From: Tigriopus japonicus
Taxonomy: Eukaryota; Arthropoda; Copepoda; Harpacticoida; Harpacticidae
NCBI GenBank assembly: GCA_010645155.1
Contig: JAAGOF010000300.1
Location: forward strand, 903,051 to 967,050
DNA: 64,000 bases
Direction of reading: 5' to 3'
In this document: one piece after another, positions 15,601 to 60,924 of the stretch
How the letters are laid out: the number at the start of each line of letters is the position of its first letter
Position numbering within the stretch: the first letter of the stretch is position 1
Position numbers and translations under genes: made by a program
Notes under the pieces: model-generated
Seen by the model: only the letters and a program-made list of their open reading frames with translations
The model's database searches: none
Told to the model about the DNA's origin: nothing

Positions 15601-15710
15601 ATTTGATCCAAATATAGAGTGGTCGAGCCCCTATCACCTAGTCTTATTCTGCAATTGGATTGGTTGGTACTCCGATTACCTCGCAGTCGTTATATTGGTG
15701 CGAGACACAA
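9628..15710. other. 6-kb stretch with no recognisable gene
   Basis: Short open frames only, without domain signatures or convincing splice partners. It includes a remnant (about 14148-14209) of the MITE family seen at 3028-3368, recognisable from ACCGAAACCGAAA and the terminal CCATCACTA. The last few hundred bases (about 15470-15710) are less AT-rich and probably hold the promoter and 5' leader of the lipase gene. Confidence 0.55.
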
Positions 15711-28708: not shown

Positions 28709-31700
28709 TCATTCATCGGCTGTGGGAGTGCCATCTTTCCCTCTGTGTCCGGGAACAGGCTCACCAGGCCCATCAAATCGATCCCGGTCCCGGTGACGAT
28801 TTTGGTCCCGTCCTCGGTGATTGAGACGATCATCCTCGGATTGGCGTCGATTCCAATGATCACGGTCTCGATGATGGCCCCGATCACTTCCACGTCGATT
28901 GTCTCGACGGTCATGGAAACGATCCCGGCGATCCCTCGGATAATTGCGATCTTCTGAAAAGCGACCCCCTCCGCCACCACCTCTTCGTCGATCGTGTGGC
29001 TGATGTTGTTGATCCTGGGGATCGAAATGCTGCTGTTCCATGTGCCTCCATGGAGGTTCGTTTCGAGGCCCTTCCCATGGATCATCTCCTCGAGTCCAAG
29101 GCCGGTTTTGCTGTCCAGGAGGCTCAAAACCTTGCATCCATGGCCCTTGTTGCTGTTGTTGGGGTGGTTGATGAGGATGATGATGGTGGTGATGATGAGG
29201 ATGGGGATGTTGTTGCTGTAAGGAGTGAAGTGAGGGAGCGCCATTGGCGTGCCAAGAAGGTCCCCCACCTCCCATGTTGGTGACAGGATGATGAGTTTGA
29301 ATTCCAGATGCCACAGGATAGGGCGGTACTGGAGGCATGGCTAAGCCGGATAAATGAGCCCCATGAGTAGTTGAGGAGGGTGTCCCTGGATATGGTGGGA
29401 CTTGAGATTTGGGTAAAGATTTTGTTGGATTACTTTCCATCTCTTGCACCTTGGCCAAAAGATCGGCATCCGACATTGAGCTCAAAGTCGAGGACGGTGG
29501 AGCTTCTTTTTTCCTTGGATCACGGGAATTCGACTGGCCCTCATTTGTACTTGCACCAAAAAGGATGCTGGAGATTGTGCTCGGGAGACCTTGAAAACCT
29601 GGAGCAGCTTTGGCTGAGGGATCAAGGCCAAAAGCCGGTCCTGAGCTCTCAATGAGAGGTTTGCGTTTATCGGCCTGAATAACCGTGGGATCTCCTTGAC
29701 CGGTCAGAGAGGCAATCTCGGCTTTTTCTCTGGCAATTTCCGCGGCCAGTTTCTTCAGTTTGGCTGCAAATACATCATTCGGCGAATGCGGGGGGCTAAA
29801 TGCGGCATCCTCACTCGACTCCATCTTGGCCATTTTCTTTTTCGGACCTTCTTCATGTTCGTCTTCGTCTTCAAGAGGAAAAGCCTTTTCAGGGTCATAG
29901 TCTTCCTCCTCCTCTTCTTCGTCTTCTTCTGAATTTGGATCAGAGAAGGCGTCCATATTGCCGGCCTTGGCTGGGTCGTACTCTTCTTCTTCTTCATCGT
30001 CGTCGTTATCTTCATCAATGATTTTGACCTCAATTTTTCGCTTCTTCTTGGTTGAAGCGTAATTGGTCGTTTTTTCGGTTCGCTTAGCGGCCTTATCTGA
30101 CAAACTGGTGGACGTCAAAGTCTTGGGCCGGATTTTAAAAGCGGAACGTTGTTTCAAGCTGGAAGAACCCTCTGGACGATGACGAACCGTGCGAACCATC
30201 AAGGCCACCAATATTTTTCCCTTTACGTTGTGCAAACCCGGTGGATCTAATGGACGTAGACATTCGGGCAAATCCGTTTCCGTCTCAACAGGAATGACGT
30301 AGCAGTCCTTGACCATTTTACTACAATTGCCGATCACACCCAATCGTGCCTTCTTCTTCAAATAGGAGTAGAAATTCTCATATCCCTGTTTCTCTAACTC
30401 GGAAGCGGCTTCGAGCCTAATCAATAATATTTCTTTCGAGGGTACCTCTGCCAGATCGACAATGTATTTCCAAACTGTATCAGGGGGAATGCGACCTACT
30501 ACTTTGAGAACCTCTTTGGGCAAATCTTGTCGGAGGAAATCGGAGACTCCAGAGAGTCCGAAAGCCTTGATATTGAAGTTGGCAACGTCAGGCATATTCA
30601 CCAGGCCATCCCAAACGAGTGAGGGCAAAGATGGCGAAGGGGCCAACCCTTCATCGCCTTCACTGACAACAATTTCAGGAGTTTTAATGTGTACGGTCGA
30701 GGAGACTTCTTCTGGAGGCGATGATAATGGCATGGAACTGTCATCCCCTAAACGAACCGGCTCCGGTTGACTGACAAGGCTATCACTCCCCGAAGCCATG
30801 GTCTGATTGAATTCGAAGATGGCCTTTTCGGCCTTGGCCATTTTCTCTGAAAATTCCTTTTGCCTTTGAGCCTCTTCTTTTTGTTTGGCCGATCGGATGT
30901 TCTGCATAATCTTTTCCACAGATTTCTCATCTTTGTCCTTTGTTTTCGTTTCAGTTTGCACGTTGTCCTTTGTTGGACTCGACGATATTGTGGTATGACT
31001 CCCAGATGAAGAGCGCTCTTTTGAAGTCTCATCAGAATGAGATTTACTACTGCTTTTGTGAGAATGGTGTCGATGACGCTCTTTGTCAGAGCTACTCGAT
31101 GATTTGTGTGACCTGGACGAAGAGCTTGAGGATTTATCTTTGTCTTTGGATGATGATTTACTAGGACGATGATGATGGTGGTGGTGGTGATGGCGATGGC
31201 GACTACTTGAACTTTCCTTGTCCTTTCGGGAGGAGGTTGACTTCTGATCTCGGCTGCGATCTTTTCCTTCGTTTTTACTTGTTGGTGTTTTCATCTGTAA
31301 ATATAATCTCTCGACATGTTAGCTGTGGGCTGAAACAAACAACCAACTCATCCGCTTCTGGTTAGCGAAATACTCACCTCTCTCTCATCATCGAGAGTGT
31401 CAAGGATCCTTTCCTCTTCCGGCATTTTGATATCGTTCACGTTGACCGACTTATCCGTCTCAATAATTTCCTCGCCTTTATGGCTTTTGACTACGAGTTT
31501 ATTGCCCATGGCCATCATCTCGAGCTCGTGGGATTTGATCTTCTCAATGTCATGCTTCAACTCGGCTTCTCTCCATTGTTGAAGCTCCTTGCTGGCCATC
31601 TCCTCTGGACTCATGTCCACCAACTTCTTTGGACTGATCTTCCCTGAAACGATCTTACGGAACAGGCCGTTGTTCTTTGGATCCTTGATATTAAAAACAA

Positions 31701-34495
31701 GCCGTCGATATTGATTTTTGTACTTAAGGCCGACATCCTTGTTAAAAATCTCATATAGTTCTTTTTCAATCGCTTTCACTAGGTCTTTTAGTTTGCTCTC
31801 GTCAATTTTAACATCCTTGTTCTTTTCAAGTCTGCCTTTCAATGCATCCAAGAGGCCTTTGCAGGCATTTTCTCTCAAAGGCTTGACGTCTTTGGGCTTA
31901 GCGGTAATCATGATTTCCCCTTTAGGCACATGAACGGTCGTTTTTCGGGCAGGTGGGTCGTGGTGTCGTTTGGGCACGTTCACATTGTGTTCATTGGATC
32001 TTCGACGAGCGTCCATGGCTCGCTTCGCATCTTGGCTCTCTCTTCTGGATTCAGATTTACGATTGGAGTCCTTCAGGGAGGCTTGAAGAGTCTCTCGAGC
32101 AGCAGAGAGGCTAGACAAAGCCATCGATTTGTACTCGGCTAGTTTTTGGTTGACTTCGTCGGAGTTCTTGGTTACTTTATCATGAGGTGGAATGATCTTG
32201 GGCCCCCGCTTTGATTTTTCCACATGAACAATAGATTGTTTCTTTTGTGACCTAAGATACAGAGACCATTGAATCAGTACGCACAGTTTATCTTTCAGCG
32301 GGCGCTCTTAGCGTCTTAATTCCTATTAACGAGAAATTCTGGCACAAAGCCCATTTTGGTGTGTGACTTACCCGTAGAACTTGGAGGTGGGCATTGATTT
32401 GGGGATGACCACGTGAAACTCGGTGTGCTTTCTCATCCAATCAGACAAAGTTTTGATGGTTGGAGCACTCGGACCACTGAACATCTGATTTGATTTAGGA
32501 TTCATGACAATGATCTGATTTGTGGCCAAAGATTCATTGCTTGTCTGAAATGTATACCACTCAGGTGCTGTCTTTTATTACTAGACACTTGAAAACACCC
32601 AACTTACCTTGGACGCAAATGCTTTTTTAGCTCGATCTACATGGGCTTCGATGCATTTATCCGAACAATAAAGAGAATGCTCCATGGGCACTTGGTCGCA
32701 CTCAAAGCAAATCTTGCCTTTGGGCTTCTAAAACAAAAAAAAATAACTAATATCCTACATTGCCTTAAACAAAACAAAAAAAAAACGGACGTACCTTTTC
32801 ACCCTCAACGATAGTTTTAGATGAGGTATTGGATACAGCTTTAGTTGAATCGGTGCGTTTTGAAGGGGATTTTTTCTCAATATCTCCCTCATTTTTGACG
32901 ACTAGGGCCTTTTTCTTGGACTCTTCTCGTTCCTTTAACTTTTGGGCTAACTCAATTCTTTGCTTTTCTTCCCGGGCTTTTTCCTCGTCGGTTTTGCATT
33001 TTTCGCAACGCCACTCTCGTCCGTTCTCTTCCATAGTTTTGCCCATCTTCTTTGTGATACCCACACATTTACCGTGGAACCAATCGAGGCATTGATCACA
33101 ACAAATCATAAATCGATTATTGTGCGGCTGCTGGCAGACGCACCAAAGACGTTCGGGATCATCTTCCGAGTTCCAGCCATCCCCTTCATCATCATCCTCG
33201 TCCTCCTCATCGTCTTCCTCTTCTTCCTCGTCTTCCACGTTTTTCTCAACCAGATCCTTTGGCTCAGCGGGCTTGGACTCGGACTCGCGAAGAAATTCTT
33301 CCTGAACATCCGCAATGCCTTCAGCGGGCTTTGTGGGTGGCGCGGGTTCAGGCACACTTTTGACTGCCGGGGTTTTGACGGTTGACCGAGATACGTCAAT
33401 CGTGACAAAATCCCCTTGAAGATGGGCCGGTACCTTTCGCTGTCGTTTAGGCCGCCCAGCAGCCACTGAGGTTTGGGCGGGCGGGACGGGACTAGACGTC
33501 ACAACGGCGAATTTGCCGGTTCCAACGGCGTCTGATTTGGCGGCCACCGCCGAGGTGGTTTGAGGCTCTGTTGGGTGTGCAAAGGCTTCTTTTTCTTTCT
33601 TGAGAAGCGCCTGATTTTCCATTCGTATGCGCTCCGCCTCCTCTTTGATTTCTTTGTCCATTCGGCGTTGACTTCGACGTTTAGGACGACCTGGCGTCGA
33701 CTCGACCGCGGGCCGAGATTCACTTACATCAGGGGACTGCAAACAAAATCGATTTAAAATGGCACGAAATCCCGGTCCAATCGACCTCATCCGTGACGCT
33801 CTTACCGTCGTTGGCCGTTGGGGCGAATGCTCAAAGCTCATTGAGTCACCCGTGGCGTTCAAATCCGGAGCCAGTTCCGAAGCTAATATGTGATCCAACG
33901 GACCGTGTTCGTCGCTCAACATGACATGGCCCAACATGTCTTTGGCCTCGGTGGACTGTAACACGCTCTCCAACTGGCTGATTTGTTCCTGATCCAAGAT
34001 GATGGAATTCGAGGCCGGATTTAAGGCGGCCGGATCATGCGATTCGACTAAGGTGGCATGGGCCAAGAGATCCCGCAAGGCTTGGGCATCACCCGCACTC
34101 GTCCCACCGGGACCTTGGGTCAGATCTAGGGTTTCCATATCGGGGGGTACGAACTCGGCCGCATCTTCGCCGCCGACCGAGGGCGTCTCTTCCAAGTCAG
34201 CGGCATTGGGGGCGGGATCACCCTCGCCCGGACCACCCAATCGGACAATCGTGACCTGCGTCGACGTTTGATTGGAATCTAGAAACACAATGAGAAATCG
34301 CATTAGGCGTGGATGGGCCACCGGATGGGATGGCTTCAACATTCTTTTGACCGTACCAATGATGGATTGAAGGACGTTTTGGTCGTAGAACATCTTTTGG
34401 TTCTCGTCAATCATGATGGTGACGGATTTCTCTTGGCCTGAGGGCGGATCACCCGTGCTATCCGCCGCCGTGAGCGTGTCCTCCGTTTCCATCAT
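28709..34495 (-). CDS. DIDO/PHF3-family transcription regulator (PHD, TFIIS-M, SPOC)
   Basis: Six coding exons: 33806-34495, 32795-33736, 32608-32727, 32372-32544, 31378-32251, 28709-31294; introns 69, 67, 63, 120 and 83 nt; product 1794 aa. About residues 428-477 are a PHD finger (WCVCQQPHNNRFMICCDQC, then WFHGKCVGI and WRCEKC). The 120-nt exon (545-584) has a small Cys motif (CFEC, YCSDKC) like that in vertebrate DIDO1/PHF3. About 765-886 form the TFIIS central domain, which docks on RNA polymerase II. About 1158-1304 are the SPOC domain, which in PHF3 binds the phosphorylated polymerase tail. The C-terminus is rich in His, Gln, Pro and Arg/Asp. Long Ser/His runs and acidic tracts link the domains. 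Expected role: nuclear reading of histone H3 and control of elongating polymerase. The start is the first of two adjacent ATGs. Confidence 0.92.
33737..33805 (-). other. 69-nt in-frame intron without stop in the DIDO/PHF3-family gene
   Basis: Begins GTAAGAGCG and ends TTTGCAG on the minus strand, phase 0, length divisible by three and free of stop codons. Retention would insert 23 residues rich in Arg. It is called an intron because of its strong donor and acceptor, but a retained form is compatible with the frame. Confidence 0.7.
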
Positions 34496-36117
34496 CGTGC
34501 TCGGGATGGACGGAGGGACTCCTCCCGTTGTCCAAATCCAACCAAGGCGACGAAAGTCACTTTAGACGTAATAAGTTGACGGCCCCAATCAAGCAAGCAA
34601 GCAATCAATCAATTAATCACGCACGACGAACGGCCAACATGGTTGCTGGACACGGAGCTCCACCTATCACTCACTCCCTTGAGCCCGTAACACGGCTCCG
34701 AAAACCAATGCAAAATGACGCGATGAATTGGTATGAACGCGAACGGCAAGTGCAATGCCACCAACACAACAACAACGCAAACTCCCCTCAAAGAGGACGA
34801 GGAGCTGTAGTCCCTAATCCAACTACAGACGAGGAGCCCACCAACAACGCGAACACGACCAGCACCACAGTGCATGCCTCAACTCAACTTGGACAGGCTG
34901 GCCAAAATTAGGAAAGACATTTAGTCAGACTCGTTTCGTGCCTCTTGATAGTCCACGTGGATCAAAACGCAGACGTACAAGATGATTGATTAGAACTGAT
35001 GGAAAATTGAAGGAAAATTGATGGGATGAGAGTGCAAAGAGCAACATTGGTGTTAAGAGCAGACCCATTATGTTGGGAAACGAATTTGGCGTTTAACGGA
35101 ACTTTTTAGCTACGCTTTCATTCACAACAAAGACTTGAGCAGCGAGCTCTGTGAGCCATGTGGGGTTGACTGAGGCTGGAGAATCCGGTTATTTTCAGGC
35201 TGAGTTGGCTGAAGTGCACGGGGAAGGAGGAAAGTAGAGCACTGTAATAGTGCTAGAGGAAAGAGGCTCACAACTGTTTTGGCATAGAGTGGATACTCCG
35301 TAGCGGATTATCGAAAAAATAACAAGGTCAAGTTTGGGCTTTGGGTAATGCTTCGCAGTAGGCTTACAATCCGGTGAAATGCGTTCAAATTTTATCATTT
35401 CTTGACTTATAGATTTTATATACTCCCATCCGCATTGTTATACATCAAGTCCAACAAATTGGTACAATTCCTTTCACAGACCTCAAAATTTCCTCTTCCC
35501 AAGTTAGGCTTCGACTAAAACGTAGATTTCTCGACTGCTGATTACCGGACGACCGACCATGCTGAAAATAAAAGAGCTCCATGATTCAAAAGACTTTTCA
35601 ACATTTTTTGTTAATATCTTCGTCCGGCCTTGCCTGTTATTTATCGAGGACAATCAACCTCATCTACTCTTTTTTTAGCGTTGCATTCGTGATTCAGCTG
35701 ACGATGGGGCGGCCATTGTTGTTGTGTTTTGGATCGATCAGCTGTGCAGCAAAAGAGGACGACATCGACAGCCCAGTGGGTGAGTGAGCGAGTGAGTGAG
35801 AGGGAGTCCGAGCGACGTGAATGCGTGTTCGCAGATTTTTCAGCTTTCGATCGGCTGCTGGATTTGTCCCCGGCATCTCCGCTCTGCCGAGAGTGAGGAC
35901 GTGTGTGAGTGCGGGATGAGGGCCGTGGCCAGGCTTGCCTCCCCTCGATTGAGCAGCCCGCTGGTTGTTACTAACTCATTGGACCGAGTGTTGGTGGACA
36001 GACATTTTGGTCGTTCGTTCCTTCGTTCTTGCTGCGGGATTGATTGATTCTCCGATTCTCGGTCGGCTCGTGGATCTCTTGGGAAGTTGGTTGCATTGAT
36101 TCGTGCGTTGGTTCAAG
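34496..36117. promoter_or_regulatory. Divergent spacer between the DIDO/PHF3-like and DAPIT-like genes
   Basis: A 1.6-kb head-to-head region. A 127-residue + frame (34528-34911) is Asn/Gln/Thr-rich, starts next to the DIDO-like gene's leader and has no domain; it is read as 5' flank, not a gene. The part from 35780 to 36117 is GC-richer and probably contains the leader of the DAPIT-like gene. Confidence 0.45.
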
Positions 36118-42277: not shown

Positions 42278-44197
42278 ATGGTAAGTAAGTCAGATTGGGC
42301 TTGACACATGGTTGGCATTTGCTTTCGAAGTGGCTTATTGCCGTGTCTTTATGTCTGACAAAGATTTCCGGGGTTATGAGGTCACCTTGGCCGTTCAATT
42401 CGTGCCGATGGATTTCGCCGGTCCAATGCGCGATGCATTGCGTTACGTTGACGCCATTTTGCCACGTCATGGTAATTCTCGCTAGAGGGCGTTAGGTCAA
42501 TCAATCCGGCTATCTTTCATCAACCTTCTTGTTTTGTGTTCATGCCGTTGTTCAAATTCAAACTAAGCGTGTTGCGTGCTCGAGCAATGTCAGCAATACG
42601 ACTTGCGAAGCTCATGTAATTTGAGCATCTTAGAATGTGGCGGACGATCCGAAGACACTTGTGCCACAATCCATGGCTGGCATTACTCGTGTTCGCCTTG
42701 GGAATGCTCATGTATAACCGTTCTGTGTTTCAGACGAGCTCCAGCTCCTTCCCCGTGATCAAGTCCCAACACTCTTTGGTGGCCAAGCATGTGACTCCCG
42801 AGAAATGGAACAAGCTCTCTGGCATCAAGACCAAAACGTCTGGATTCACTTTGGCCCAAGTAAGTTTTGTTCAATAGGCTGCTAGTCAAGCAAGTCAGTA
42901 TCAGCTTGAAGTATGTATGACGCGATAAGCCAAAAAGCGTTTAATGCCCACAAGATACTGACCTCTTTTAAAAAAGGCTGTTGGGAGATGTGCGATATCG
43001 TTCTACGTGAAGCCTTATCTCTGTTTGGCCTCTTTTTCAAGCCCTTTTCGTGCTTCTCCTCGAAGGCGATTATTTATGAATGCATTTCTGAGCAGGAAAA
43101 TGCGATGCATCGTCTTGAGGCGGGTTAAGCCGGTTAAGACTGGAAGATGAGCTTACCAAGAAGAAGAAAAATCATAAACCCGTTTTTGAAAGATACACAA
43201 TACACTCACTGGGTTGTTGATGCTAACATTAATGTCTCTTTCCTTATTCAAGGCCATTGCTTGCGCTGTGCAATTTGACGACCAACATTGCGGTATCTAT
43301 GCCGGAGACGAAGACTCTTATTCCGACTTCAGCGATGTGTTCCACCCCCTGATCTTGGAGTACCATGGGCTCAGCCCCGAGTTTTCCCATACCTCTGATA
43401 TGGACACTACCAAGCTAAAGGGCAACATCGATCCCAAGGCCCCTGTCAAGTCGACCCGTATCCGTGTGGGTCGTAGCATTGAGGGATTCGGTCTGTCGCC
43501 CGGAATCACGCGTCAACAGCGTCTCGATGTCGAGAACCTGATGAAGCACGCCTTCGGCAAGTTGAAGTACGACTTGGCCGGCAAATACTACCCTTTGCAG
43601 GGTATGGACGAGGGAACCCGTCAAAAATTGGTGGATGATCACTTCTTGTTCATGTCTGGAGACAAGAACCTCCAAGCCGCCGGTATGGAGCGTGATTGGC
43701 CCGAGGGTCGTGGAATTTACCACAACGAAGCCAAAACTTTCTTGGTGTGGGTCAACGAGGAGGACCAACTTCGCATCATCTCGATGCAGAATGGAGGCGA
43801 TGTCCGTGGCGTGTTCGACCGCTTGGCTCGCGGCATCGACGCCGTGGCTGATTCGGTCAAGTCCGAATCGGGCAAGAATTTCATGCTCCACCCCAAATAT
43901 GGCTATTTGCATTCGTGCCCCACCAACTTGGGTACTGGCATGCGCGCTTCGGTGCACATTGACCTGCCGGGCTGGACCAAGGAAGGCTTGCCTGCCTTGA
44001 AGAAGCGTTGCGAGGAGTTGGCTCTCCAACCCCGTGGCACCCGTGGTGAATCCGGCGGCCAAACTGGTATCACCTATGACATCTCCAACAAGCATCGTTT
44101 GGGATACTCCGAGGTCCAATTGGTTCAGACCATGATCGATGGAGTAAACACCTTGTACAAGGAAGATTTGGAATTGCAGAAGAAGCACGGCTTGTAA
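42278..44197 (+). CDS. ATP:guanidino phosphotransferase, arginine-kinase type with creatine-kinase-like features
   Basis: Three exons: 42278-42280 (only the ATG, followed by GTAAGTAAG), 42734-42859 and 43253-44197; product 357 aa, normal for the family. It moves phosphate between ATP and a guanidino compound (arginine in arthropods) to buffer cellular ATP. The active-site cysteine is Cys265 in CPTNLGT, catalytic Glu in NEEDQLR (222-223) and in RGTRGE (Glu309), and DDHFLF, RDWPEGRGI and YDISNKHRLG motifs are intact. CPTNLGT and RGTRGE are arginine-kinase hallmarks, and the substrate loop before GIYAGDEDSY has arginine-kinase length but carries Gln-His-Cys (54-56) in place of the usual Ser-Gly-Val. 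The N-terminus (LSGIKTKTSGFTL) and C-terminus (GYSEVQLVQTMIDGVNTLY) resemble creatine kinases. ATTAAA near 44303 may serve as poly(A) signal. Confidence 0.95.
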
Positions 44198-49821: not shown

Positions 49822-52800
49822 TTATTTCAAGAGCCTGCCCGCTCGGTCATTCGCCATTTTCACTCGAGACTCATTCGACTGGGCCTGAAGAGGGTGAAAT
49901 ATCAGATTAGTTCATGCTTTCCTTTACTATTCAGTCATCACCACCCACTTTGAGGTTTATCCTGTCCAGTTGAGAATTTTGATTGGACACCTCTGTTCCC
50001 ATGTCTGCGGCCATATTCCGTAGATTACCGATCATTGTGCTCACTTGTTGCATGTTCTCTTCCATTTCCTCTTCGCGATCGTCGTTCGTGATCCTGAAGG
50101 AGTACAAGACTTAATGAAGAATCTCAATCCACAATCCGTAATCAAGTCAAACGAGCTACTACCCTAGTAGTGAGATCTTAAAAATGAATGAAATGAACAA
50201 CGAGCTGGTTTATGAGCAAAGATTGGATCGGAGATCCAACTCTTATATGGTTCCGTCCGGCGTGAGGAGATGCGAATCGTCAGAATTTAGCAAAGCTCAT
50301 CATTGTTCGTTCTGTCGAATCTATCTTGGCATTCCAATGAATCATGCCTCCTCAATTAAGAGGGAATCAATCAGAATGGACATCAAGGTCGCTTCCTTTA
50401 AATTCAAAACTACTTGGAGCTCCTCAAATAAAGAAGTATTTGCGTACTAATTCTTTTGCCGTTTATTGGCATTAAAGAGAGAAAGAAAGAGAGCGAGGTG
50501 TCGATTTAGCGTGGCAGAAGTTTTTACAAGAACGTCGTAAAGCGATCTCAAACATTAATTTCTATGTGTAGTAAAGTCCTTGCATCGATTCACTTCTACC
50601 TTGGATACCATAAGTCATTGTGATTAATCAAGTATGTACTTACATTGTGCTTAATGTGGAATTCAATATTCTAGGTCATATTCTATTATGGAGCGGACTG
50701 AATTATACAGGGTTGGCCACTTAACCGAGCAGGGGTAATTGTTAGTTACGGACAATTAGGGGCTTCGAATCAAGAAGTCATTGTCACAAATGGTTTTAAT
50801 TTTACGGTTATCTAGAACTTTTGTTTTTAAACAATTTCTCGATTTGACGAATTGACGAGGTCTTGAATTCAAGTTGCATTAACAGCAGTTATATTTTTGT
50901 TGGATGAGTGGACTAATTTAGGTGGGAATTTTGGGGCCAAACTGGTTAGGGATGGATCACAACTGGGTTAGTTAAAGTTTGTAACGCAAAGGAAAAGTTA
51001 TGGTTTCGATTGATTTTCAAAATCAAGAATTGTAATTGAGCTTTTTTGGGGGTTAATCTTCACTCTGAGGCAGCCCTAGCCATTTTGGCCCCAGAATTCC
51101 TAGCTGAATTCGTCCGATTACACTCATCATACCTTCAACATTTATCCCACAATTGGGTTTGATAGATTAATGTAAAGTTTATTTTTCTTCCTCACAAGTC
51201 CATTGGATTGGGCTTTCAGAACAAGAGAGGAACTTAATCTCAAAACTGACTTTCTCTCAGATTTCTATTAATTGGGAGGTGTTGTAGGGTAATAAAAGGC
51301 ACCCACTTGATTTTGGAAGGTTTAGAAATTCAAGTCTTGTTATTGGATAAAAATTTTGACACAAATTACTGATAAAAGTGACCCTTAATGTCAGATGTGG
51401 TTTCTTTGCTTGGTTTTAAGAGCAAGGTCAATTGTAGGCTAGAGTGCCATTTCTTCTCCAAAACTCAATCCCATAAACCTTTTAATTAAACCTTCATTTG
51501 AATCCTTTTATGGGATGAATGTGGAAGGTACTGTTAACAGAATAGTGTTCATTCTGGAATTCGATGACTGGATGAAAAGAACTTCAGTCTTCTTTTATTG
51601 CTAATTGAATTCAAAGCCCCATCAAAAATGGGGCCCACTTAGAGAAATTGTTTGAAAACAAAAGATCTAGATGAATATATAATAAGAACTATTTGTAGCA
51701 ATAATTTTTTGATTCAAAGCCCCTGATTATTCGAAATTTACAATTTTCCTTGTCCGGTTTTAAGTGGCCAACCCGGTAGGCTTCAATCAAATGTGTTGAG
51801 ACGTTCCTCGAGTGGAATTTTATTGGTATGAAGAAGCAATTTCAAAAAGCAAAATCTGAAAATACCCTTCGTACATATAATGTACAAAAAAACGGATCCT
51901 CAACCTGCAATTGGCATGTCTGACAAGCAATTACTGAATACGGGTAAGAACGGACAAATGATCAAAACTGGTTTTTGGAATAGCGTTTTTTTTTCTTTTC
52001 GGTAATAGCTTTTTTCGTTCAAAATTTGAAGTGACAGAATTCACTTCCGATTTGATTCAAAGAGCAAGAAATAAAGCTTCGACAACTTTCGACCTTACAC
52101 AAGGTCAAAAGCTAGAAACGCTACAACTGTACAAGTTCAAGCGAGAAAAATGCACCTCTGTAACATTTTACATAGGCGATTTTAATATTGTATGTCGATA
52201 TGGGACATGTCGTCCCATCCCCTACATGGTCCCCAACATGTTTAGATCAACTAGAATATCACAATGGGTTTCCACATTAGCTCTAGCCTATTTGGATGTT
52301 ACTGCTCGATTCGATCATATATATATCAAATGGAATCAAATGGAACAAGAATCAAACAAAGGGTTTCGTCATGCCCTCGGTTTGAAGAAGCTCAAATACA
52401 AACTAAAATCCTTGTCTTAATTAGGATTTACCGAAATAAAGATGATAAGAAATGAGATAAGATTTTCACGAAGGTCAGCTTGCTCGCTACGTGTATGTAG
52501 TAGTTGCATATGGAAGAAAAAAGTAGTGCTCTAAGGATTGTCAGAGGAACAACGGTATTTGGTATACTGTAGTGGTTTCAAGACCTTTCAAGTTAGCCTT
52601 GGCGACGAACGTTAATCCTAGTAACTTCACATAGCCACGGGAATTCGCAGCTAAAAGAGATGGTATATGCACCACATCATCAGTCTTGAAGTCACAAAGA
52701 CACTTATTTTCACATGAATGGATTGTATCTACTATGTAGGTTGTAAGTTGGTACATGGTAGGTGAGGAGGTTGTTACTTAACATCATGGTGTTCTGAATG

Positions 52801-54352
52801 GCTTTTTAGGTTTGGATCAAATACCCAAAGATATCATGGCACTTTTTGGACCCGTAATTCCATGGGGAACAACTTTACTTTTATTGTTTTTCATAAGTTT
52901 AGGTCAAGGGAAAAATTATATACCTAAAAACCTATTAAATATGACATTTCTAAATAAACTATTTAACCCATATATAGAGACCATTTAGTTACCTTACGAA
53001 TTCAAGTTGAATAAAAATTCATTCATCAACAGCTAAGTTATTTGACTTTGCATGGTCCATTTTTGACACCAGAAAGCCGAAAAACGCTACAGTTAAATGA
53101 AAAACCTAATTCCCAAAGATCCCAAATAGCTTTTCAATAATGCTAAAAATAAATGAATTTTTGAGTTTTGGAGATTTTGTTAAAATAACTCAAAATAATA
53201 TGAAATCTCACTTAAAAAGAATTTAAACAAGATTTTCGGAGAACATATTTCATAACTATTTAGAGTGCACTCACTTTTTTGTGTGTTCAGCCAAAATTAC
53301 AAATAAATATGTCTTACAGATTCATATTCAAATGTACAATTTCTTGAAGGACCATCATGGAATTCAATTCAGTTCAAAATGGACTAAAACAGAAACTTGA
53401 AACATCAACCGAATTTTTCAAAACTGCTAAGTTTTGCCCAACTTTGAGTGCCTTTGACATTGCAAAAATAATTTTTTATCGCAAAATGTATTTTCAGTGC
53501 TTTTTAAGTGAAATTGTATATTATTTTGAGCTATTTTGACAAAAAAAAATCATTTATTTTTGCGATATTGAAAAGCTATTTGGGATCTTTGGGAATTTGT
53601 TTTTTCATATAACTGTAGCGTTTTTCGTCTTTTTGGTGTAAAAAATGGACCATGCCAAGTCAAATAACTCAGCTGCTGATGAATGTATCTTTATTCAATT
53701 TGAATTCAACACATGACTAAATGGTCTCTATATATGGATTAAATAGTTTATTTAGAAATGTCATATTTAATACGTTTTTAGGTATATAACTTTTCTCTTG
53801 ACCTAAACTTATGAAAAACAATAAAAGTAAAGTTGTTCCCCGTTGAATTAAGGGTCCAAAAAGTGCCATGATGTCTTTGGGTATTTTGATCCAAACCTAA
53901 AGAGCCATTCGTAACACCGTGAGCAATCATTGATCCTTGGGGTGGGTCTGGAGTTTGAGCTCCCCCCCTGGCTCACCCTATTCTGTGTGTAGCTTGTGAA
54001 AAAAAGATTTAACTGGTACTTACTTGGCTACATAGCCCCCTTGGGGCCCCATCCCACCCATTTGAGTTGGAGGCGGTCCACCACCTCCCACACCTCCATC
54101 TTCACCTCCTTTCCAGACAGCGTCATCTTCTTTGAACTCATTCGATCTGAAAGTACATCACCATATCATACTCCAGTCTTTGCCTACTACGGCCTTGCCA
54201 GTTTATGAAGAAACCTTCTTCAGTAGTAGCTTACTTTTTCCAGAACTTGGGGAAAATGCCACAACAAAGTTCCATTCCTTTGAGAGCCTTTTCGGCAATC
54301 TGCATGTCGGCGTTGATCGAATCCAAGCCGCCCTCGATTTTTTCCAGTTGTT
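49822..54352 (-). CDS. SNAP25: SNAP-25 3' module 3
   Basis: C3 54235-54352 (118 nt): [17 protein letters not shown] with [11 protein letters not shown] (two adjacent Cys). D3a 54024-54146 (123 nt): [17 protein letters not shown], the linker closest to the insect pattern, then a Gly/Pro stretch. D3b 49949-50093 (145 nt): the Qc SNARE from [14 protein letters not shown] to [14 protein letters not shown]3 49822-49884 (63 nt): [20 protein letters not shown] and stop. Full product 208 aa. The D3a-D3b intron is 3.9 kb, swollen by at least three transposon-like insertions, while other introns in the locus are mostly below 700 nt. Confidence 0.92.
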
Positions 54353-57300
54353 CTGAAGGGAAAACGAGTGGGATCCAGTTCAGTGTCTACGATCAATGAA
54401 CTTTTCGGGAAATGAAGTACAGACAGAGAAGAACAAACGAAGAAGAAGAGAAGCCTTTTGGCATCGTGTGCTTTCAAAAGTCGGGACACGTATATTTTGC
54501 AGGCATTCTCGTACAGATCTAAGTCAAGTGGTTCCATGAGTTTGACGACGGAGACGGATAGGAAGACGAGTCCATTCACGAACAAAGTAATCCTTTTTCT
54601 GCGGTCTGAATTTTGAACATGAAGGACAAATTGTTTCGCAACGCACTCGTCAGTCAGGCTGCTGGCAATGGTTCTGGCGTTTGCATCGCGCACAAATATC
54701 GAGAACACATATCATATTTGGTCAGATTTGAGTCAATGGGAAACACTCCAGAGATACCTAGGGTGTGCAACATTGCCGAACAAACCTTTTAACCTGTGCA
54801 TATCCAAACTCTGTTTTCCCTGCTGTCTCTTTCCTTGACTACTTCGGTTCAAAAATGACTAGTTTCTCTCTGAGGCAAGCTTTTCTGGTAAGTATGGTGC
54901 CTGAAGGCAGGAGGTCACCGCAACTCATGACATACATCAACTAATAAAAGGGCACCAATACGGATTTATTCACCACTTGAGAAGCAAAATGAGTGTCCAT
55001 CTAATGATATTTTCAACAGTACAACATGAACACGAGGTAAGAATTCTCCGCTCGATGCGGATACTGCTCTTCCGTTTCAGGGTATGCGTGAAACGTCATC
55101 CATCATTTCATAAGTTTGCCCGCTCTTTTATTTGCCGTAGCTACCCGATTTTCCTCCGAAGAGGCCTAAACAAACGGAGAGAGAGAGGTTGATTGGTTGG
55201 TTAGTAGGTAGGTAGGTAGGTGGATGGGTAAGGGACTAAGTACACGGATGTAGAGAGAGCAATAAAAATAGGAATTGGAACTAGATTAGACCAATCGTAC
55301 CTTTTCATAAATGGTGCCAATCTGCTTATTTTGAGTTTCGAGCTCGGTTCCCATGTCAATGGCCATATTTCGGAGATTATTAACAATTGCAGCCACGTGG
55401 TGCATGTTGTCTTCCATTTCGTCTTCACGAATATCGTTTGTGACACTTGGGGAAAGACGGTGGTCGGTCATAAACTGAACCATTTGTCATTTCTTTCTAC
55501 CTAGGTTGAACTTGAATCCTCCCTTCTCTAGGTAGACAATTGGGAGGTCTACCTACTTGCAAATGAACCCTGCTGCATTTTGCTTGCCTCCTAGAATGCT
55601 CGGATGGTCCATTGAAATTCGACGTTGAGTAAGGACTGCACCTGCTTGCGAAGCATCCTCATTTGTAGGGAAATTATTGGCTCCATAGGATTCCTCGGCC
55701 TCTAACCTTGACTTCCTCCCTCTGCATGCAGGAATAGATGGCGAACAAAACACATGATAGCGATTTGGCGGACTGGATACATGACTTGGCCAAATAGCAT
55801 CGTGAACCATGGATCAGTGCGTATGGCAAGTCGAATTTGGGAAGGTTACGAGAGGTTACCCTACCTTAAGCAAGGAAGGCATCGCAAAAGGCCTAAGCAG
55901 CAACTTTCCATGCCTCGTAAGGCTCTTTCAGCCTGATGCATTTCAGAGTTTATGTTATCCAAACATTGCTCAATGTGGTCGAGTTGCTCTGTGTAAGGGA
56001 AAAGATGCCAAAACGTTGAGTGAGAATTTGGTTCTAATTGCACGGCATTTATGAAGCTTAAATCATTTGCAATCAGTGCGGATTGACCTCTTTCCAACCT
56101 CCTTTTATCCGACCAAGTTTATCACGGCCCTTGTTGTTCAATATCATAAACTTGTTTTCTTTGTTTTTAGACATCAAACAACATCCATGCGTTTTTTCGA
56201 AGCCTACATTTATCAACTAACAAGAATATTCTTACATTAAATGTGCAAGGTTTAAAAGTCTAAGGGAAATCAATCACAATAACATCAGCCTGAATGTGAA
56301 AAACCAGAAAATTAAAAAAATAACAATGTTATATTTGTTCATCATCAGTGAAATATCAATTCGTGGCGGATAAACAAATGAAAGCTACAAGGGACATCTG
56401 TAATACATTGTCGATAAGTAAGTCCTTGAATCGTGATTAATGAATGAACGTAGAATACGTGTATGGGGTTGGCCGAAACTGGTGTAAGTGCTTTTCAGTC
56501 ACTTCAACAGAAACTCTGTTCTCCGATTGACTTCGACAATCCGACTCTCCACATTGAAACTCTACAAATGGGCAGAATGTGTGAAAATAAGGTAGGTACA
56601 TAGCACATGGGGGCCTGATACAAAATGGGTGCGTTGAGTCTGATACAAAAAATAACCAAGGTTATTTCAAAAGTTTCTCTGTCCGTTTGTTGGCCAATCC
56701 AATCCTGGCATCCACCAGTTGACTCTGTAGAAAGAAATCAAATCAAAGCAAGAAATAAAGAGCAAATCAAATTAAAGATAAGAGTAACAAAACAAAAGTG
56801 CCAACCACATCCATCACCTGCCATTCTTGTTAGACCCTCTCCAAATGTTAGCAAGATCTCAAATACCTTTGTGTTTAATCTATCAATCTGACTATTCTGA
56901 GTCTCAATCTCGTTGCCCATTTCACTGGCCATGGCTTTCAAGTTTCCAAGAATATTTCCAACGGATTGCATGTTCTCCTCCATTTCGTCCTCGCGTGCAT
57001 CGTTATTGATCCTTTGAATGTACGGACCATCAGATTGAACGTTAACGGCCGAGGCACCCGAGGGTTTCGAGCCAGTTTTGGTTGGAGATTTGCCATTACT
57101 TTTACCATTGGCTTTGCTCCAAGACGCGTCGGTGTCCTGAACTTTGGATTGTCTGTTGAAACGATAAACCCCAACACCAAGAGAGCCCGATCATTTCTGT
57201 ACTCGCTTTGGTAATCTCTACTACAAGCTTCGGTTTACCTTCGCCAAGGAAAGATACACAATCCACACCATTTTTCCATTCCGGTCAAATGCTTCTCTGC

Positions 57301-58036
57301 TTGTTTCATTTCGGCATTCATGTTATCCATGCCCTCTTCAATGCGATTCAATTGTTCTATAGTTACCGATGAAAATGGAATTGATTTCAACAAGCTTAGT
57401 CTTTACGAAAATCTGAACTGTCTTAGGTTACCTCCTTGGACATCCAACAATTCCAGCGTTTTGGTTCCAGCTGCTTGGCTCTGAATTAAAAAAAAAACGA
57501 ACAAAAACAAAATAAATTTTAGAAAAGCAAATAAATGTATGATGATGCTACATTTATAGACTGAGAAGATTCTTAATAATAACAACGATCAGAATATAAT
57601 AGGAAATGAACAAGATCCGCCACCAATTGATCATTTGATCACCAATGAATCGTAAAATTTAAGTGATTCCAATTCAAACTTCATGCTCACACCCTTCATC
57701 ACCCCCCTTTAAACGGAACTTACCTCCTTGATCGTCCAAAGCCACCAAAGTTTTGATACCAGCCTCCTTGGACTAGGAAAGCATTGATTGTAAACAACAA
57801 ATCAAAGGTGAGAAAACACAAGTTTGAGCCCTTTTCCCAATAAAAAACATTTCTACAAAATGACCGTCACCGTCTACCGTGTTCTCTGTTGCCATAACTC
57901 TACTTACATCTTCGCACATGGCGATCATTCTTCGCGTACTCTCCAAAGATTCATCCGTTATTTGGTTGGACTTGAGTTGGAGAGATTCCAACTCAGTAAG
58001 TGGAGGACCTTCATCATGTTGTACTTCGGCGGCCAT
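49822..58036 (-). CDS. SNAP25: SNAP-25 locus with one 5' exon and three tandem alternative 3' modules
   Basis: SNAP-25 is the Qbc-SNARE that pairs with syntaxin and synaptobrevin to drive vesicle fusion at the plasma membrane. Order of transcription: shared exon A (57908-58036); alternative 49-nt exons B1 (57724-57772) and B2 (57432-57480); module 1 (57239-57356, 56867-57152, 56662-56724); module 2 (55865-55988, 55557-55721, 55301-55445, 55103-55165); module 3 (54235-54352, 54024-54146, 49949-50093, 49822-49884). All junctions are GT-AG and phase-matched (A/B 0, B/C 1, C/D 2, D/E 0). Products with one B exon are 214, 224 or 208 aa; vertebrate SNAP-25 is 206. No second copy of exon A was found, so a single gene with alternative 3' parts is inferred rather than three genes. 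Confidence 0.92.
50708..51776. mobile_element. TA-flanked DNA transposon (about 1.07 kb, non-autonomous) in the SNAP-25 intron
   Basis: The left end CAGGGTTGGCCACTTAA and right end TTAAGTGGCCAACCCGG are inverted repeats, with further inverted similarity inward (AGGGGCTTCGAATCAA). Each side is flanked by TA, the target duplication of Tc1/mariner-type elements. No transposase frame remains. A second MITE (50905-51126) sits inside it. Confidence 0.75.
50905..51126. mobile_element. MITE with TGAGTG...CACTCA ends (copy 2), nested
   Basis: About 222 bp, with a right end CCGATTACACTCA and an interior matching the 44603-44857 copy over most of its length (for example CATTTTGGCCCCAGAAT). It lies within the 50708-51776 element, so it arrived later or travelled with it. 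Confidence 0.65.
52785..53921. repeat. Large foldback element (about 1.14 kb) in the SNAP-25 intron
   Basis: Arms of about 375 bp (52785-53160 and 53540-53921) are inverted copies that agree at most positions by eye, from CATGGTGTTCTGAATGGCT at the left edge to AGCCATTCGTAACACCGTG at the right edge and inward to the TCCCAAATAGCTTTTCAATA block. The spacer of about 380 bp is AT-rich. A lone arm is at 21467-21800. In the SNAP-25 pre-mRNA the arms could pair into a long double-stranded RNA. Confidence 0.85.
54965..54970 (-). terminator. AATAAA poly(A) signal after SNAP-25 module 2
   Basis: A canonical hexamer on the minus strand, 133 nt beyond the module 2 stop and upstream of module 3. It suggests that module 2 can end a transcript. 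Confidence 0.65.
55103..55988 (-). CDS. SNAP25: SNAP-25 3' module 2
   Basis: C2 55865-55988 (124 nt): [17 protein letters not shown] and a cysteine region [13 protein letters not shown] with four Cys, two residues longer than C1. D2a 55557-55721 (165 nt): a longer linker ending AAGFIC. D2b 55301-55445 (145 nt): the Qc SNARE from [14 protein letters not shown] to [14 protein letters not shown]2 55103-55165 (63 nt): [20 protein letters not shown] and stop. Full product 224 aa. An AATAAA signal (TTTATT on + at 54965-54970) lies 133 nt after the stop. Here the D region is split by an intron that module 1 lacks. Confidence 0.9.
56662..57356 (-). CDS. SNAP25: SNAP-25 3' module 1
   Basis: C1 57239-57356 (118 nt): rest of the Qb helix ([17 protein letters not shown]) and the cysteine region [10 protein letters not shown] with two Cys. 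D1 56867-57152 (286 nt, one exon): a Lys/Ser/Gly linker, then the Qc SNARE from [13 protein letters not shown] to [13 protein letters not shown] with the central Gln. E1 56662-56724 (63 nt): [20 protein letters not shown] and stop. Full product 214 aa. No canonical AATAAA was found between its stop and module 2. Confidence 0.92.
57432..57480 (-). CDS. SNAP25: SNAP-25 exon B2 (49 nt), alternative to B1
   Basis: Same length and phases as B1, encoding [16 protein letters not shown]. It keeps the central Gln but changes 7 of 16 residues around it. Acceptor TTTTTAATTCAG, donor GGAG/GTAACC. Including both B1 and B2 would shift the frame (49 is not a multiple of three), so the two are expected to be mutually exclusive. 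Confidence 0.9.
57724..57772 (-). CDS. SNAP25: SNAP-25 exon B1 (49 nt)
   Basis: Encodes [16 protein letters not shown] plus one base of the next Glu codon. It carries the central-layer Gln of the Qb helix. Acceptor TTTCCTAG, donor GGAG/GTAAGT. Close to the canonical SNAP-25 sequence. Confidence 0.93.
57908..58036 (-). CDS. SNAP25: SNAP-25 exon A: start and first part of the Qb SNARE helix
   Basis: 43 codons from ATG (GAACGATGG) to the donor GAT/GTAAGTAG, phase 0. Contains the family hallmark [13 protein letters not shown]. The short acidic N-terminus replaces the vertebrate MAEDADMRNELEEM. Upstream untranslated exons were not resolved; the region just 5' is GC-richer. Confidence 0.93.
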
Positions 58037-60924
58037 CGTTCTTCAGGTAAGTCCTCTTTAACGAACAATCCAAGGGCACGAACGGCCAAGCTATCTGCAA
58101 GGAAGAGATGGCAAGTTCAATCGCGAAAGTTCTTACTTGAGACAGATTAGTTGCTCCCGATTAGATACATTCAAGTGTTGACTTCATAATCAAGTCAAAG
58201 ATTATCGGAAAAGTTTTATTGAGACTGTACCAACGACTTCCAAGTTGGCAAGAACAATGGGCATCTTCAGATACGGTCCAAGGCAGAAAATGGTCCAATC
58301 TCTCCAGAGGAGGAAACAGAAAGGAAGGGAAGCAGCTGTCCGTGTCGGCCCCCTACTTGTTACTTCATTCTCGGGTTGAGAATCTCTAAAATCTTCAAAC
58401 CAAAGAAGTCCGTTCACAAAGATCTTCAACTACTAGTACAATCACTAAAATTTCGTAACGAATAAACTCCGATCAAATCTACTTTTGAAATACAATATTT
58501 GTATTGAATATAAAAGGCGTGAGCAAGAAAAAACCAAAGCCAAATGGCTTTGAAAAGCTCAACTTAGATAAACTGAACTGGAAGTGGAGGTTCACTAACC
58601 TGCGATCAGACAATATCAATCCCGAAACGATTCACTGCACATACACACCCCAATTAACGGGTAGGTTTTTTTAAACTTTTTGCCCAGCAATTAGCACCAA
58701 TTCTCCTAGATATCGACGGTCCTACACCCAACAGTCACAGATCCATCTCAGTCTCGGGTGATCCTTGAAGACGGCCTTCAAGATCCTCAGCCGACCTGCC
58801 AGTAAACCACCACCACTATCACCGCAACCTTTTTGTGCCCAGTGGCTCCTCGTGAGTAAGTTGAAAGCTTTATGTTCTGCCTCGATGGCCTTCACAACTC
58901 AAGACTCCCGAGATCTGGCGGCCTTTCGCTCGAAATCACACTCCCTCACATTCGATAACCATACTTATTCCACTGACAGCGCCCAACAAGAAGGACACCA
59001 TGGCCCGAGGTTGACGAGTGCTCGGAGCAAAGCAAAAAGAGGAGGAGGAGGAGGAGGAACGCGACAGACGCTGACGACAATGATAACGACGACCTTGAAA
59101 CTCGTCCTTCTCTTTCGCCTTCCCTCGTCATGTCTCGCCCCTCCTCCTCTCTGGTCTTCAGTTCAACCGAATCAGATTTCCAGAGACTCGAAGGCCTCCT
59201 TCTTCCCCTTTTGAAATCTACTGGTGATGGTCGATCGCGCACAAAAGCAAAGCTAAACAAGGACAAGTTCCTCTGTCGTCCGTGATTCGCCCGCACCAGC
59301 GGGTGGCGGGCGGAAACCGACTGTCTCGAGGATGAGCAACAGTCGATCGGTCCCAACGAGAGGCTGGCAGGCTTTAGCTTTTCCCTGCAGTCGGCTTGGC
59401 TCTTTTCCTCTGTCTTTCCAAAGATGTCACGCCCGCCTTCTGAAACCAATATCTATCCATCCACCTATCCAATACACTGGGTTAGACTTAGGGACGTACG
59501 GGGGATGGAACCCCACAGCCTCCCCTCCCCTCCCCTTCCTTCTGTCTTGCTTCCTTGGGCTTGGCACTGACTGTGTGTCTGTCACGTGAGCCAACCAGGA
59601 ACAAAGACCACAAAGAAAGTATGGGCGGGATTACAATCTTGTAACCCCATAGAAGGAAGGAATGGATGGATGGAACGCCTTGAGCGCCCAGAGATAAGGG
59701 GTTTATTTCACGATTCGGCTACGGGGGCAGGCTTCTCCTGGACCCTGGATTTTTCTGTCACCTTTATTTTTCCTTTCATGTCCTTGGTCCCGAAAATGTC
59801 ATTCATTCGATTTCAGACTAGGCCGTTACTCCGATCTATTAATGTAATGACAAAACAGAACTATGAAGGTCGTTTTCCTTGGGATTCGTCCATACCTGAA
59901 ATGGTCCAAAGTGAGGCCGTTTACTCTTCGTGTGCAAATCGGGGACAGTTCCAGCGAAACTTTCGATACAAGAACCAAGGGGGGCGACAAACTCAGGTTT
60001 ACCATTACATTTCGCCAGAGAGCGCATTGTTCTGAAATTGTCGCGTGAGTGAGTGCGAGACAGGCAACCAAGCACCAAAAAATCAGCTGAACGGCTGTTA
60101 AGAATTCTGCCGAAATACAAGCAGACAGCCGGCTGGCTGCCCAAGCAAGCCTTAAATCAATGTGCTCCCCCTGACAAGAACAGACACATCGGCGTCGTTA
60201 ACGTGTGGCTCTTTTTAGTGTCAGATTCGTCCGACTCGACTCGCCTGACTTGAGGGCTGTACTCTGTGAGTTGGGCCTCAGCTCGTCTCGATACGGCCCT
60301 GGTCTGGATCTGTGACTCACCTAGCCTCCTTTTCTTCTGCTACCGGGTCCAAGGCCGCCAGGCAACTTTCCTGAATAGTGATGAATGTGAGACTTCCTTC
60401 GAGCCCAGAAGTAAACAAAGTCGAAGCTCAACTGTTGAAGAATAAAGTTGATTCTGTGGAATTCGTTGACTCAAATATATAACAAAGGCAACAAAAAATC
60501 CAATTTGTTGTGTTGGAGTTATTCCCACTTGAGTCCAAGCGGGCCAGGCACAATATTTTAAATGAAGTTAGACTTTGCATGTGAGGGTAGACCTGATTTT
60601 TGATGAAGCCATTTTGATCAAAAACCAGAAATCAATAGCCGACCTCAGTCATCCAGATGATTCAGCAGACCCCACACTTGATGCCTAAATGTCTACAACG
60701 CTAAATTTTTAGTTTTACAGCTTTGAGATAGCTCGGAATATTCTCCACCTCTTTGATGCCAAACAACTTGAGAATGAACGGTTTGAGGCAAAAACAAGTT
60801 GGATTATCGGACTCGAGCTCCATTGAAAATATCTCGGACCAGTCCCGACTTTAGTTGGCAGCTGCAACCGATCACTACTAGCGTTTGACATTAAAGGTGC
60901 CACGGTAGATGGCGTTGTTAATCT
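58037..60924. promoter_or_regulatory. Upstream region of the SNAP-25 locus
   Basis: No protein-coding gene is supported. The interval 58750-59560 is markedly GC-richer, with purine/pyrimidine runs (GAGGAGGAGGAGG near 59040, CTCCCCTCCCCTCCCC near 59521), and is the best candidate for the SNAP-25 promoter and untranslated first exon. Long open frames here on both strands have low-complexity, Ser/Leu/Pro-rich translations and are not called. Confidence 0.4.

What the first reader, a model, noticed from the sequence alone, without database searches (positions are those of the whole stretch)
49822..58036. SNAP-25 gene with three complete, phase-matched alternative 3' modules
Seen: one start exon, then three tandem sets of exons each encoding the rest of the Qb helix, a cysteine region, a linker, a Qc SNARE and a 63-nt terminal exon with stop. 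All joins keep frame (B/C phase 1, C/D phase 2, D/E phase 0) and give 214, 224 or 208 aa. No second exon A was found between the modules. Known: vertebrate SNAP-25 has only one duplicated exon (5a/5b), which corresponds to exon C here. Inferred: a single promoter chooses among three almost complete SNARE bodies, so one locus could make several functionally distinct Qbc-SNAREs. I know of no described animal SNAP-25 gene with this organisation, though I could not search.
Basis: partly seen in the sequence, partly recalled or inferred. Interest (0 to 1): 0.93.

Follow-up and report, generated by a model that had tools for sequence, protein, structure and literature searches.

The report
Copepod SNAP-25 gene with swappable bodies
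A small crustacean's gene for SNAP-25, a protein that fuses vesicles with membranes, appears to have one start followed by three complete alternative bodies; relatives' sequences indicate that the same start is joined to at least two of them, so one gene could make several distinct fusion proteins.

Summary
All six A-B-module combinations are open: 214, 224 or 208 aa; both B exons, or neither, break the frame. The species is a close relative of the copepod Tigriopus californicus. Among 304 listed database proteins two combinations occur: A-B2-M1 and A-B1-M3. In two lineages (6 clusters, 4 pairs) exon A is identical on both kinds while the rest is 44-49% identical; a separate paralogue's exon A is never that close (33 of 38 testable). 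So exon A is almost certainly shared by M1 and M3, and B choice is coupled to module choice. M2 is intact and conserved in T. californicus (129/148), but I found no full-length M2 product. M1 is one strongly supported group with harpacticoid, salmon-louse and calanoid members. Alternative tandem 3' modules are known in other genes (GNAO, Drosophila pip); none was found described for SNAP-25. New variant of a known kind.

The parts
57908..58036 (-). Exon A: start codon and first part of the Qb SNARE helix (43 aa), shared start exon
   Evidence: only copy in the window
58037..58094 (-). Probable 5' untranslated part of exon A, preceded by an AG acceptor (ttccttgcag)
   Evidence: read; inferred, no RNA
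57724..57772 (-). Exon B1 ([16 protein letters not shown]), holds the Qb zero-layer Gln; the version found with M3
57432..57480 (-). Exon B2 ([16 protein letters not shown]), same length and phase as B1; the version found with M1
57239..57356 (-). Exon C1 (module 1): end of Qb helix and 2-Cys region [10 protein letters not shown]; 75-nt intron after B2
56867..57152 (-). Exon D1 (module 1): linker and most of Qc helix, one exon
56662..56724 (-). Exon E1 (module 1): end of Qc helix and stop, 63 nt
55865..55988 (-). Exon C2 (module 2): end of Qb helix and 4-Cys region [12 protein letters not shown]
55557..55721 (-). Exon D2a (module 2): linker
55301..55445 (-). Exon D2b (module 2): most of Qc helix
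55103..55165 (-). Exon E2 (module 2): end of Qc helix and stop, 63 nt; AATAAA at 54970
54235..54352 (-). Exon C3 (module 3): end of Qb helix and 2-Cys region [10 protein letters not shown]
54024..54146 (-). Exon D3a (module 3): Gly/Pro-rich linker
49949..50093 (-). Exon D3b (module 3): most of Qc helix, after a 3930-nt intron
49822..49884 (-). Exon E3 (module 3): end of Qc helix and stop, 63 nt

Best explanation
This is one copepod SNAP-25 gene. Its pre-mRNA starts with the shared exon A, which splices either to B2 and on through the adjacent C1-D1-E1 (module 1), or to B1, which skips B2 and module 1 and joins module 3 (and, I infer, sometimes module 2); each module ends in its own stop and presumably its own poly(A) site. 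The products are complete Qbc-SNAREs with the same first 43 residues but a different rest of the Qb helix, membrane-anchoring cysteine region, linker and Qc helix. Shown: exon anatomy and frames; the A-B2-M1 and A-B1-M3 combinations in database proteins; identity of exon A across the two in relatives. Inferred: that splicing rather than separate promoters makes the choice in this species, that M2 is used through exon A, and that the products do different membrane-fusion jobs. A possible route for the coupling: the short introns B2-C1 (75 nt) and C1-D1 (86 nt) favour splicing this block as a unit, while the C1 acceptor has a shorter pyrimidine run (5) than C2 (11) or C3 (9), so B1 would pass it by; competing RNA structures, as reported for PGRP-LC 3' regions (PMC9013439, passage), are an untested alternative. 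Possible history: an alternative B pair, perhaps older than copepods, was followed by tandem copying of C-D-E, and each B became tied to one copy.
For: Anatomy and frame. Single exon A in the window; in the assembly only the C6 paralogue and a distant C1 match. T. californicus: RefSeq isoform X1 (P0074) is A-B2-M1, and gene model TCALIF_08585 gives both M1 (-PB) and M2 (-PD) products. Of 109 listed M1-type clusters none carries the B1 sequence alone (P0005, a model, carries both); 104 have a B nearer the B2 consensus, 5 do not (P0121 a tie). Of 7 copepod-like M3 clusters 6 carry complete B1 and P0242 its end. Identical exon A with different bodies: P0142/P0238 (40/40 residues; rest 72/165) and P0155, P0156, P0171 versus P0239 (45/45; rest 75/158, 77/158, 78/161); one mismatch in P0135, P0141 versus P0007 and P0164, P0170 versus P0239. 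Control: 33 of 38 C6-type proteins had a long enough exon A and none is closer than 7 mismatches to any of the 71 testable M1 proteins. Eurytemora model P0143 runs from an M1 start into a second C-D-E body.
Against: No RNA from this organism was available. No full-length M2 protein was found (best 120 of 434 hits listed). All protein counts come from the best 120 hits of each of three searches (434, 1113 and 942 hits), and the M1 query carried B2, the M3 query B1. Relatives' genomic DNA could not be searched, so their shared exon A is inferred from protein identity; of 5 testable M3 proteins, P0003 and P0240 have no M1 partner closer than 4 and 12 mismatches. Many proteins are unnamed metagenome products; 'copepod' and 'transcript' are inferences. 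Rows are 90%-identity representatives and B1/B2 changes only about 3% of the protein, so B1-M1 products could be hidden in the 51 of 109 M1 clusters with more than one member. No AATAAA lies between E1 and C2 or within 1 kb after E3.
Confidence: 0.85

Rival explanations
1. A tandem gene cluster: modules 2 and 3 are separate genes with their own promoters and undetected first exons.
For: Stop codons and gaps of 673 and 750 nt separate the modules; a Lepeophtheirus model (P0241, isoform X3) starts with other residues just before B1.
Against: No exon A or further B found in the gaps, nor an exon A elsewhere except the C6 gene and a distant C1 match; M3 proteins of relatives carry exon A identical to M1 proteins. 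The extra residues of P0241 look like translated intron before B1 (my reading).
Confidence: 0.07
2. Only M1 and M3 are used; M2 is a decaying or unused copy.
For: No M2 protein in the listed hits except a T. californicus gene-model fragment; longest branch of the three window modules (1.57); no match to Pfam's SNAP-25 model.
Against: Complete frame, all splice borders present, both zero-layer Gln kept, 129/148 identical to T. californicus.
Confidence: 0.25
3. Exon A is joined to downstream modules by trans-splicing between separate RNAs.
For: Trans-spliced 3' alternatives are known for Drosophila mod(mdg4) and lola (recalled).
Against: All exons are on one strand in order over 8.2 kb, so ordinary cis-splicing suffices; nothing here requires separate RNAs.
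Confidence: 0.04
4. B1 and B2 combine freely with all modules, giving six isoforms; the apparent pairing is a clustering artefact.
For: All six combinations are in frame; B1/B2 differ by about 3% of the protein, so one representative could hide the other in 51 of 109 M1 clusters.
Against: 58 of 109 M1 clusters have a single member; none of the 109 carries B1 alone, and 6 of 7 copepod-like M3 clusters carry complete B1, the seventh its end.
Confidence: 0.15

Closest known systems
Vertebrate Snap25 exon 5a/5b (PMC2581893; passages read)
   Same: Same gene family; homologous duplicated exon used alternatively; exon C here corresponds to exon 5 (39 aa, end of Qb helix and cysteine region)
   Different: Vertebrates swap one 39-aa exon differing at 9 residues; here everything after B is replaced, down to 44-47% identity, including linker and Qc helix
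Vertebrate GNAO final exon pair 7-8 (PMC5896119; passages read)
   Same: Tandemly duplicated multi-exon 3' end, one shared set of 5' exons, mutually exclusive endings
   Different: Two endings of two exons in a G protein; here three endings of three or four exons covering most of a SNARE, plus a coupled upstream exon
Drosophila pip (PMC9013439; passages read)
   Different: Different gene, eight clusters; no coupled upstream exon choice is mentioned in the passage I saw
Insect SNAP-25 records with alternative exon B (Bacillus P0012/P0052; Copidosoma P0038/P0100; Thrips P0236/P0279; Cloeon P0013, P0284, P0287)
   Same: Alternative versions of the same short exon, same position and length
   Different: The rest of the protein is the same, or nearly so in Cloeon, in the pairs compared by eye; no extra 3' modules seen
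Tick SNAP-25 isoforms (Amblyomma P0017 versus P0056)
   Same: Alternative 3' end of SNAP-25
   Different: Only the last stretch differs

Membership tests
SNAP-25 family (Qbc-SNARE) | Two SNARE motifs, each with a zero-layer glutamine | tested here: met
   Gln at layer 0 of Qb and Qc in all six products (layer positions and human sequence recalled)
SNAP-25 family (Qbc-SNARE) | Cysteines between the motifs for membrane attachment | tested here: met
   2, 4 and 2 Cys in M1, M2, M3; palmitoylation itself not testable
SNAP-25 family (Qbc-SNARE) | Pfam PF00835 above its curated cut-off | tested here: inconclusive
   M3 41.7 bits (cut-off 25): met; M1 22.7: below; M2: no match. Homology of M2 to solved SNAP-25 over residues 13-223, 3e-46
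SNAP-25 family (Qbc-SNARE) | Forms a four-helix complex with syntaxin and VAMP | not testable with these tools
   needs biochemistry
Mutually exclusive exons (B1/B2) | Adjacent homologous exons of equal length and phase; both or neither breaks frame | tested here: met
   49 nt each, 10/16 identical residues; frame test
Mutually exclusive exons (B1/B2) | Never both in a mature RNA | tested here: inconclusive
   No RNA; among M1-type rows one gene model (P0005) was seen to hold both, with extra residues between them
Alternative 3' modules of one gene | One 5' exon joined to different terminal modules | tested here: met
   For M1 and M3, indirectly, by identical exon A in relatives; not shown for M2

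The most novel reading that the evidence does not exclude
Copepods have long used one locus as a three-way Qbc-SNARE selector: a B1/B2 exon choice was wired to whole duplicated SNARE bodies, so coordinated splicing at two separate places makes three (up to six) functionally distinct SNAP-25s, including a Tigriopus four-cysteine M2 form with an altered Qc +4 layer.
Probability: 0.5. Interest if true: 0.75.

Novelty: new variant of a known kind. Interest (0 to 1): 0.62.

Why it matters
SNAREs are usually diversified by gene duplication or, in vertebrate SNAP-25, by swapping one small exon. Here one start exon is linked to complete alternative SNARE bodies; M1 bodies occur in harpacticoid, salmon-louse and calanoid records, M3 bodies in Tigriopus-like and salmon-louse ones. 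That gives a natural set of Qbc-SNAREs with a constant N-terminus for asking what cysteine region, linker and Qc helix contribute to fusion, and a compact case of two coupled splice choices. Gene models of such loci are easily wrong (P0005 and P0143 look fused), so isoforms may be missed in annotation.

Tried and rejected
Pfam PF00835 against the own assembly found nothing, nor in the 14 control genomes; uninformative, replaced by protein searches. Rfam on the window: no match. Assembly duplication rejected: modules are under 48% identical. A second exon A rejected. Placing the second body of Eurytemora P0143 failed: long branch 1.69 and better scores to canonical and M3 bodies than to M1 or M2, without a clear winner. 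Orthology of copepod B2 with the third insect B type is hinted at by consensus, but mean identity is 0.53, equal to that of B2 with B1 of the M3 class; left open. Poly(A) signals: one AATAAA only, after E2; no conclusion.

Papers: ten accepted searches. Searches returned none. Searches (20 of 45 listed; 19 of 20; 15 of 329; 9 of 9; 1 of 1; 12 of 26) list nothing that by title or abstract start describes a copepod or multi-module SNAP-25. Opened, passages only: PMC2581893, PMC3912159, PMC5740500, PMC5896119, PMC9013439.

Rows dropped: of 14 M3-class proteins 7 with C-E identity 0.59-0.66 (P0016, P0051, P0071, P0105, P0106, P0115, P0293; two named as nematodes) were left out of the copepod count; they carry B1-like exons too. 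Five of 38 C6-class and 38 of 109 M1-class proteins had too short an exon A for the control. The tree used 50 rows; P0214 was dropped for lack of the cut motif.
Full report
What is there. On the - strand, 58036-49822, lies a SNAP-25 gene with a single start exon A, two homologous 49-nt exons B1 and B2, and three sets of downstream exons, each ending in a 63-nt exon with a stop. All fourteen coding exons have GT/AG borders where a splice is needed. A joined to either B and any module gives an open product: 214 aa (M1), 224 aa (M2), 208 aa (M3). Skipping both B exons or using both shifts the frame in all three modules.

Products. M2 matches solved SNAP-25 over residues 13-223 at 3e-46. The zero-layer glutamine is kept in both helices of all six products; the cysteine regions differ ([32 protein letters not shown]), and in the Qc helix M1 and M2 depart from the usual core (V and E at layer +4, where M3 has N, layer positions and human sequence recalled). 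Pfam's SNAP-25 model passes its cut-off only for M3.

Organism. The closest named proteins are Tigriopus californicus: P0074 matches A-B2-M1 (exon A 38/43, rest 162/170 residues), and P0001, from gene model TCALIF_08585-PD, matches M2 (129/148). The window's species is therefore a near relative, not named by any tool. That TCALIF denotes T. californicus is recalled. The same gene model number yields an M1 product (-PB, P0005) and an M2 product (-PD), so both modules lie in one annotated gene there.

Is exon A shared? The three protein searches listed the best 120 of 434, 1113 and 942 hits, 304 different proteins. I classified them by their C-to-E region: M1-type 109, M2 1, M3-type 14 (7 of them copepod-like, at 84-92% identity), C6-paralogue type 38, nearest to an insect or decapod reference 142. 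Comparing exon A of 105 M1 proteins with 191 others (those with at least 30 residues) gave 10 pairs with at most 3 mismatches, all to M3. In four pairs exon A is identical: P0142/P0238 (40/40) and P0155, P0156, P0171 with P0239 (45/45). In four more it differs by one residue (P0135, P0141 with P0007; P0164, P0170 with P0239). The rest of the identical-A pairs is only 44-49% identical (72/165 to 77/158). Two separate genes would hardly keep exon A identical while all else diverges to under half. The control is the paralogue on contig C6, a separate gene: none of 33 testable relatives has an exon A closer than 7 mismatches to any of 71 testable M1 proteins, and in this genome it matches exon A at 31/43. 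Against: P0003 and P0240 have no M1 partner closer than 4 and 12 mismatches, and P0241 and P0242 lack exon A. P0155, P0156 and P0171 differ from each other in the body, so identity shows shared lineage rather than one individual. The longest contigs of clusters P0142, P0155, P0156, P0171, P0135, P0141, P0238, P0239 and P0007 are 908-1094 bases and hold whole reading frames, which I take as spliced RNA; the tools do not say so.

B is coupled to the module. None of 109 M1-type clusters carries B1 alone; P0005, a model, carries both. 104 are nearer the B2 consensus, which was itself made from these rows; P0121 is a tie and P0188, P0191, P0208, P0216 are slightly nearer B1 without having its sequence. 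Of 7 copepod-like M3 clusters 6 carry complete B1 and P0242 its end. Rows are 90%-identity representatives, but 58 of the 109 M1 clusters have a single member. This is the main refinement of the finding: the choice of B and the choice of body, the latter across a 3371-nt intron for M3, are linked. The sequence offers a hint at how. B2-C1 and C1-D1 introns are 75 and 86 nt, B1-C1 367 nt. The C1 acceptor has a longest pyrimidine run of 5, C2 11, C3 9. This is suggestive only.

History. In a tree of 50 C-to-E regions (46 of the 304 proteins, P0143 cut into two, plus the three window modules), M1 is one side of a branch with support 100/100 and includes Tigriopus, Lepeophtheirus, Caligus and Eurytemora rows. 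M2 stands alone on a branch of 1.57 with its T. californicus counterpart. M3 groups with the C6 paralogue (100/98). The C6 gene (L022 6595-2949) reads A, B, C and part of the linker as one exon, and the rest as a second; it keeps none of the intron positions of the window gene and has one of its own. That fits an old retrocopy of an A-B1-M3 message, which would make that splice form old (inference). Insect records show alternative B exons with the same or nearly the same body (P0012/P0052, P0038/P0100, P0236/P0279, Cloeon P0013, P0284, P0287), and tick records an alternative end (P0017, P0056). So smaller alternatives occur in other arthropod SNAP-25 records, while whole-body modules were seen here only in copepods.

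Module 2. It is intact, conserved between two species and has an AATAAA 133 nt after its stop (54970), but no full-length product with exon A was found in the listed hits. I give 0.25 to its being unused.

Precedents and literature. [quoted passage not shown] 3' variable regions of PGRP-LC are chosen through competing RNA structures (PMC9013439, passages). The vertebrate Snap25 exon 5 duplication changes 9 of 39 residues and is reported absent in Drosophila (PMC2581893, passages). Copepod muscle myosin is reported to have lost mutually exclusive exons in favour of many genes (PMC3912159, passages), the opposite route. Ten paper searches listed no description of a SNAP-25 gene like this one; several lists were capped and most subscription papers are not held.

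Verdict. The feature is real; shared use of exon A by M1 and M3 is well supported; use of M2 and the regulatory mechanism remain open.

Noticed in passing
window 52819-53886: Foldback element in the D3a-D3b intron: 330-nt arms, 91% complementary, 408 nt apart; 40 matches scored out of 1687 candidates genome-wide, several in similar opposed pairs.
   Followed up: partly
L022 6595-2949 (-), G000:C6: SNAP-25-like paralogue with none of the window gene's introns and one intron of its own in the linker; nearest to module 3, with relatives in T. californicus (TCAL_03071) and Lepeophtheirus (P0260); looks like an old retrocopy of an A-B1-M3 message.
   Followed up: partly
G000:C1:13489183-13489830 (+): Distant, apparently intronless SNAP-like reading frame (27-30% identity), possibly SNAP-29 (name recalled).
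   Followed up: no
P0143 (Eurytemora carolleeae, 322 aa): Gene model that runs from an M1-type start into a second C-D-E body, as if modules lie in tandem in a calanoid too.
   Followed up: partly
P0013, P0284, P0287; P0017, P0056: Mayfly (Cloeon) SNAP-25 records with three alternative B exons and tick records with alternative ends.
   Followed up: partly
window 28712-34561 (-): Large reading frames with PHD, TFIIS central and SPOC domains in gene order, resembling DIDO/PHF3 proteins (name recalled).
   Followed up: no
window 43190-44194 (+): Guanido phosphotransferase (arginine-kinase-like) reading frame.
   Followed up: no
window 15642-17201 (+): Alpha/beta-hydrolase lipase reading frame.
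   Followed up: no
window 6086-7065: Run of N of about 980 bases.
   Followed up: no
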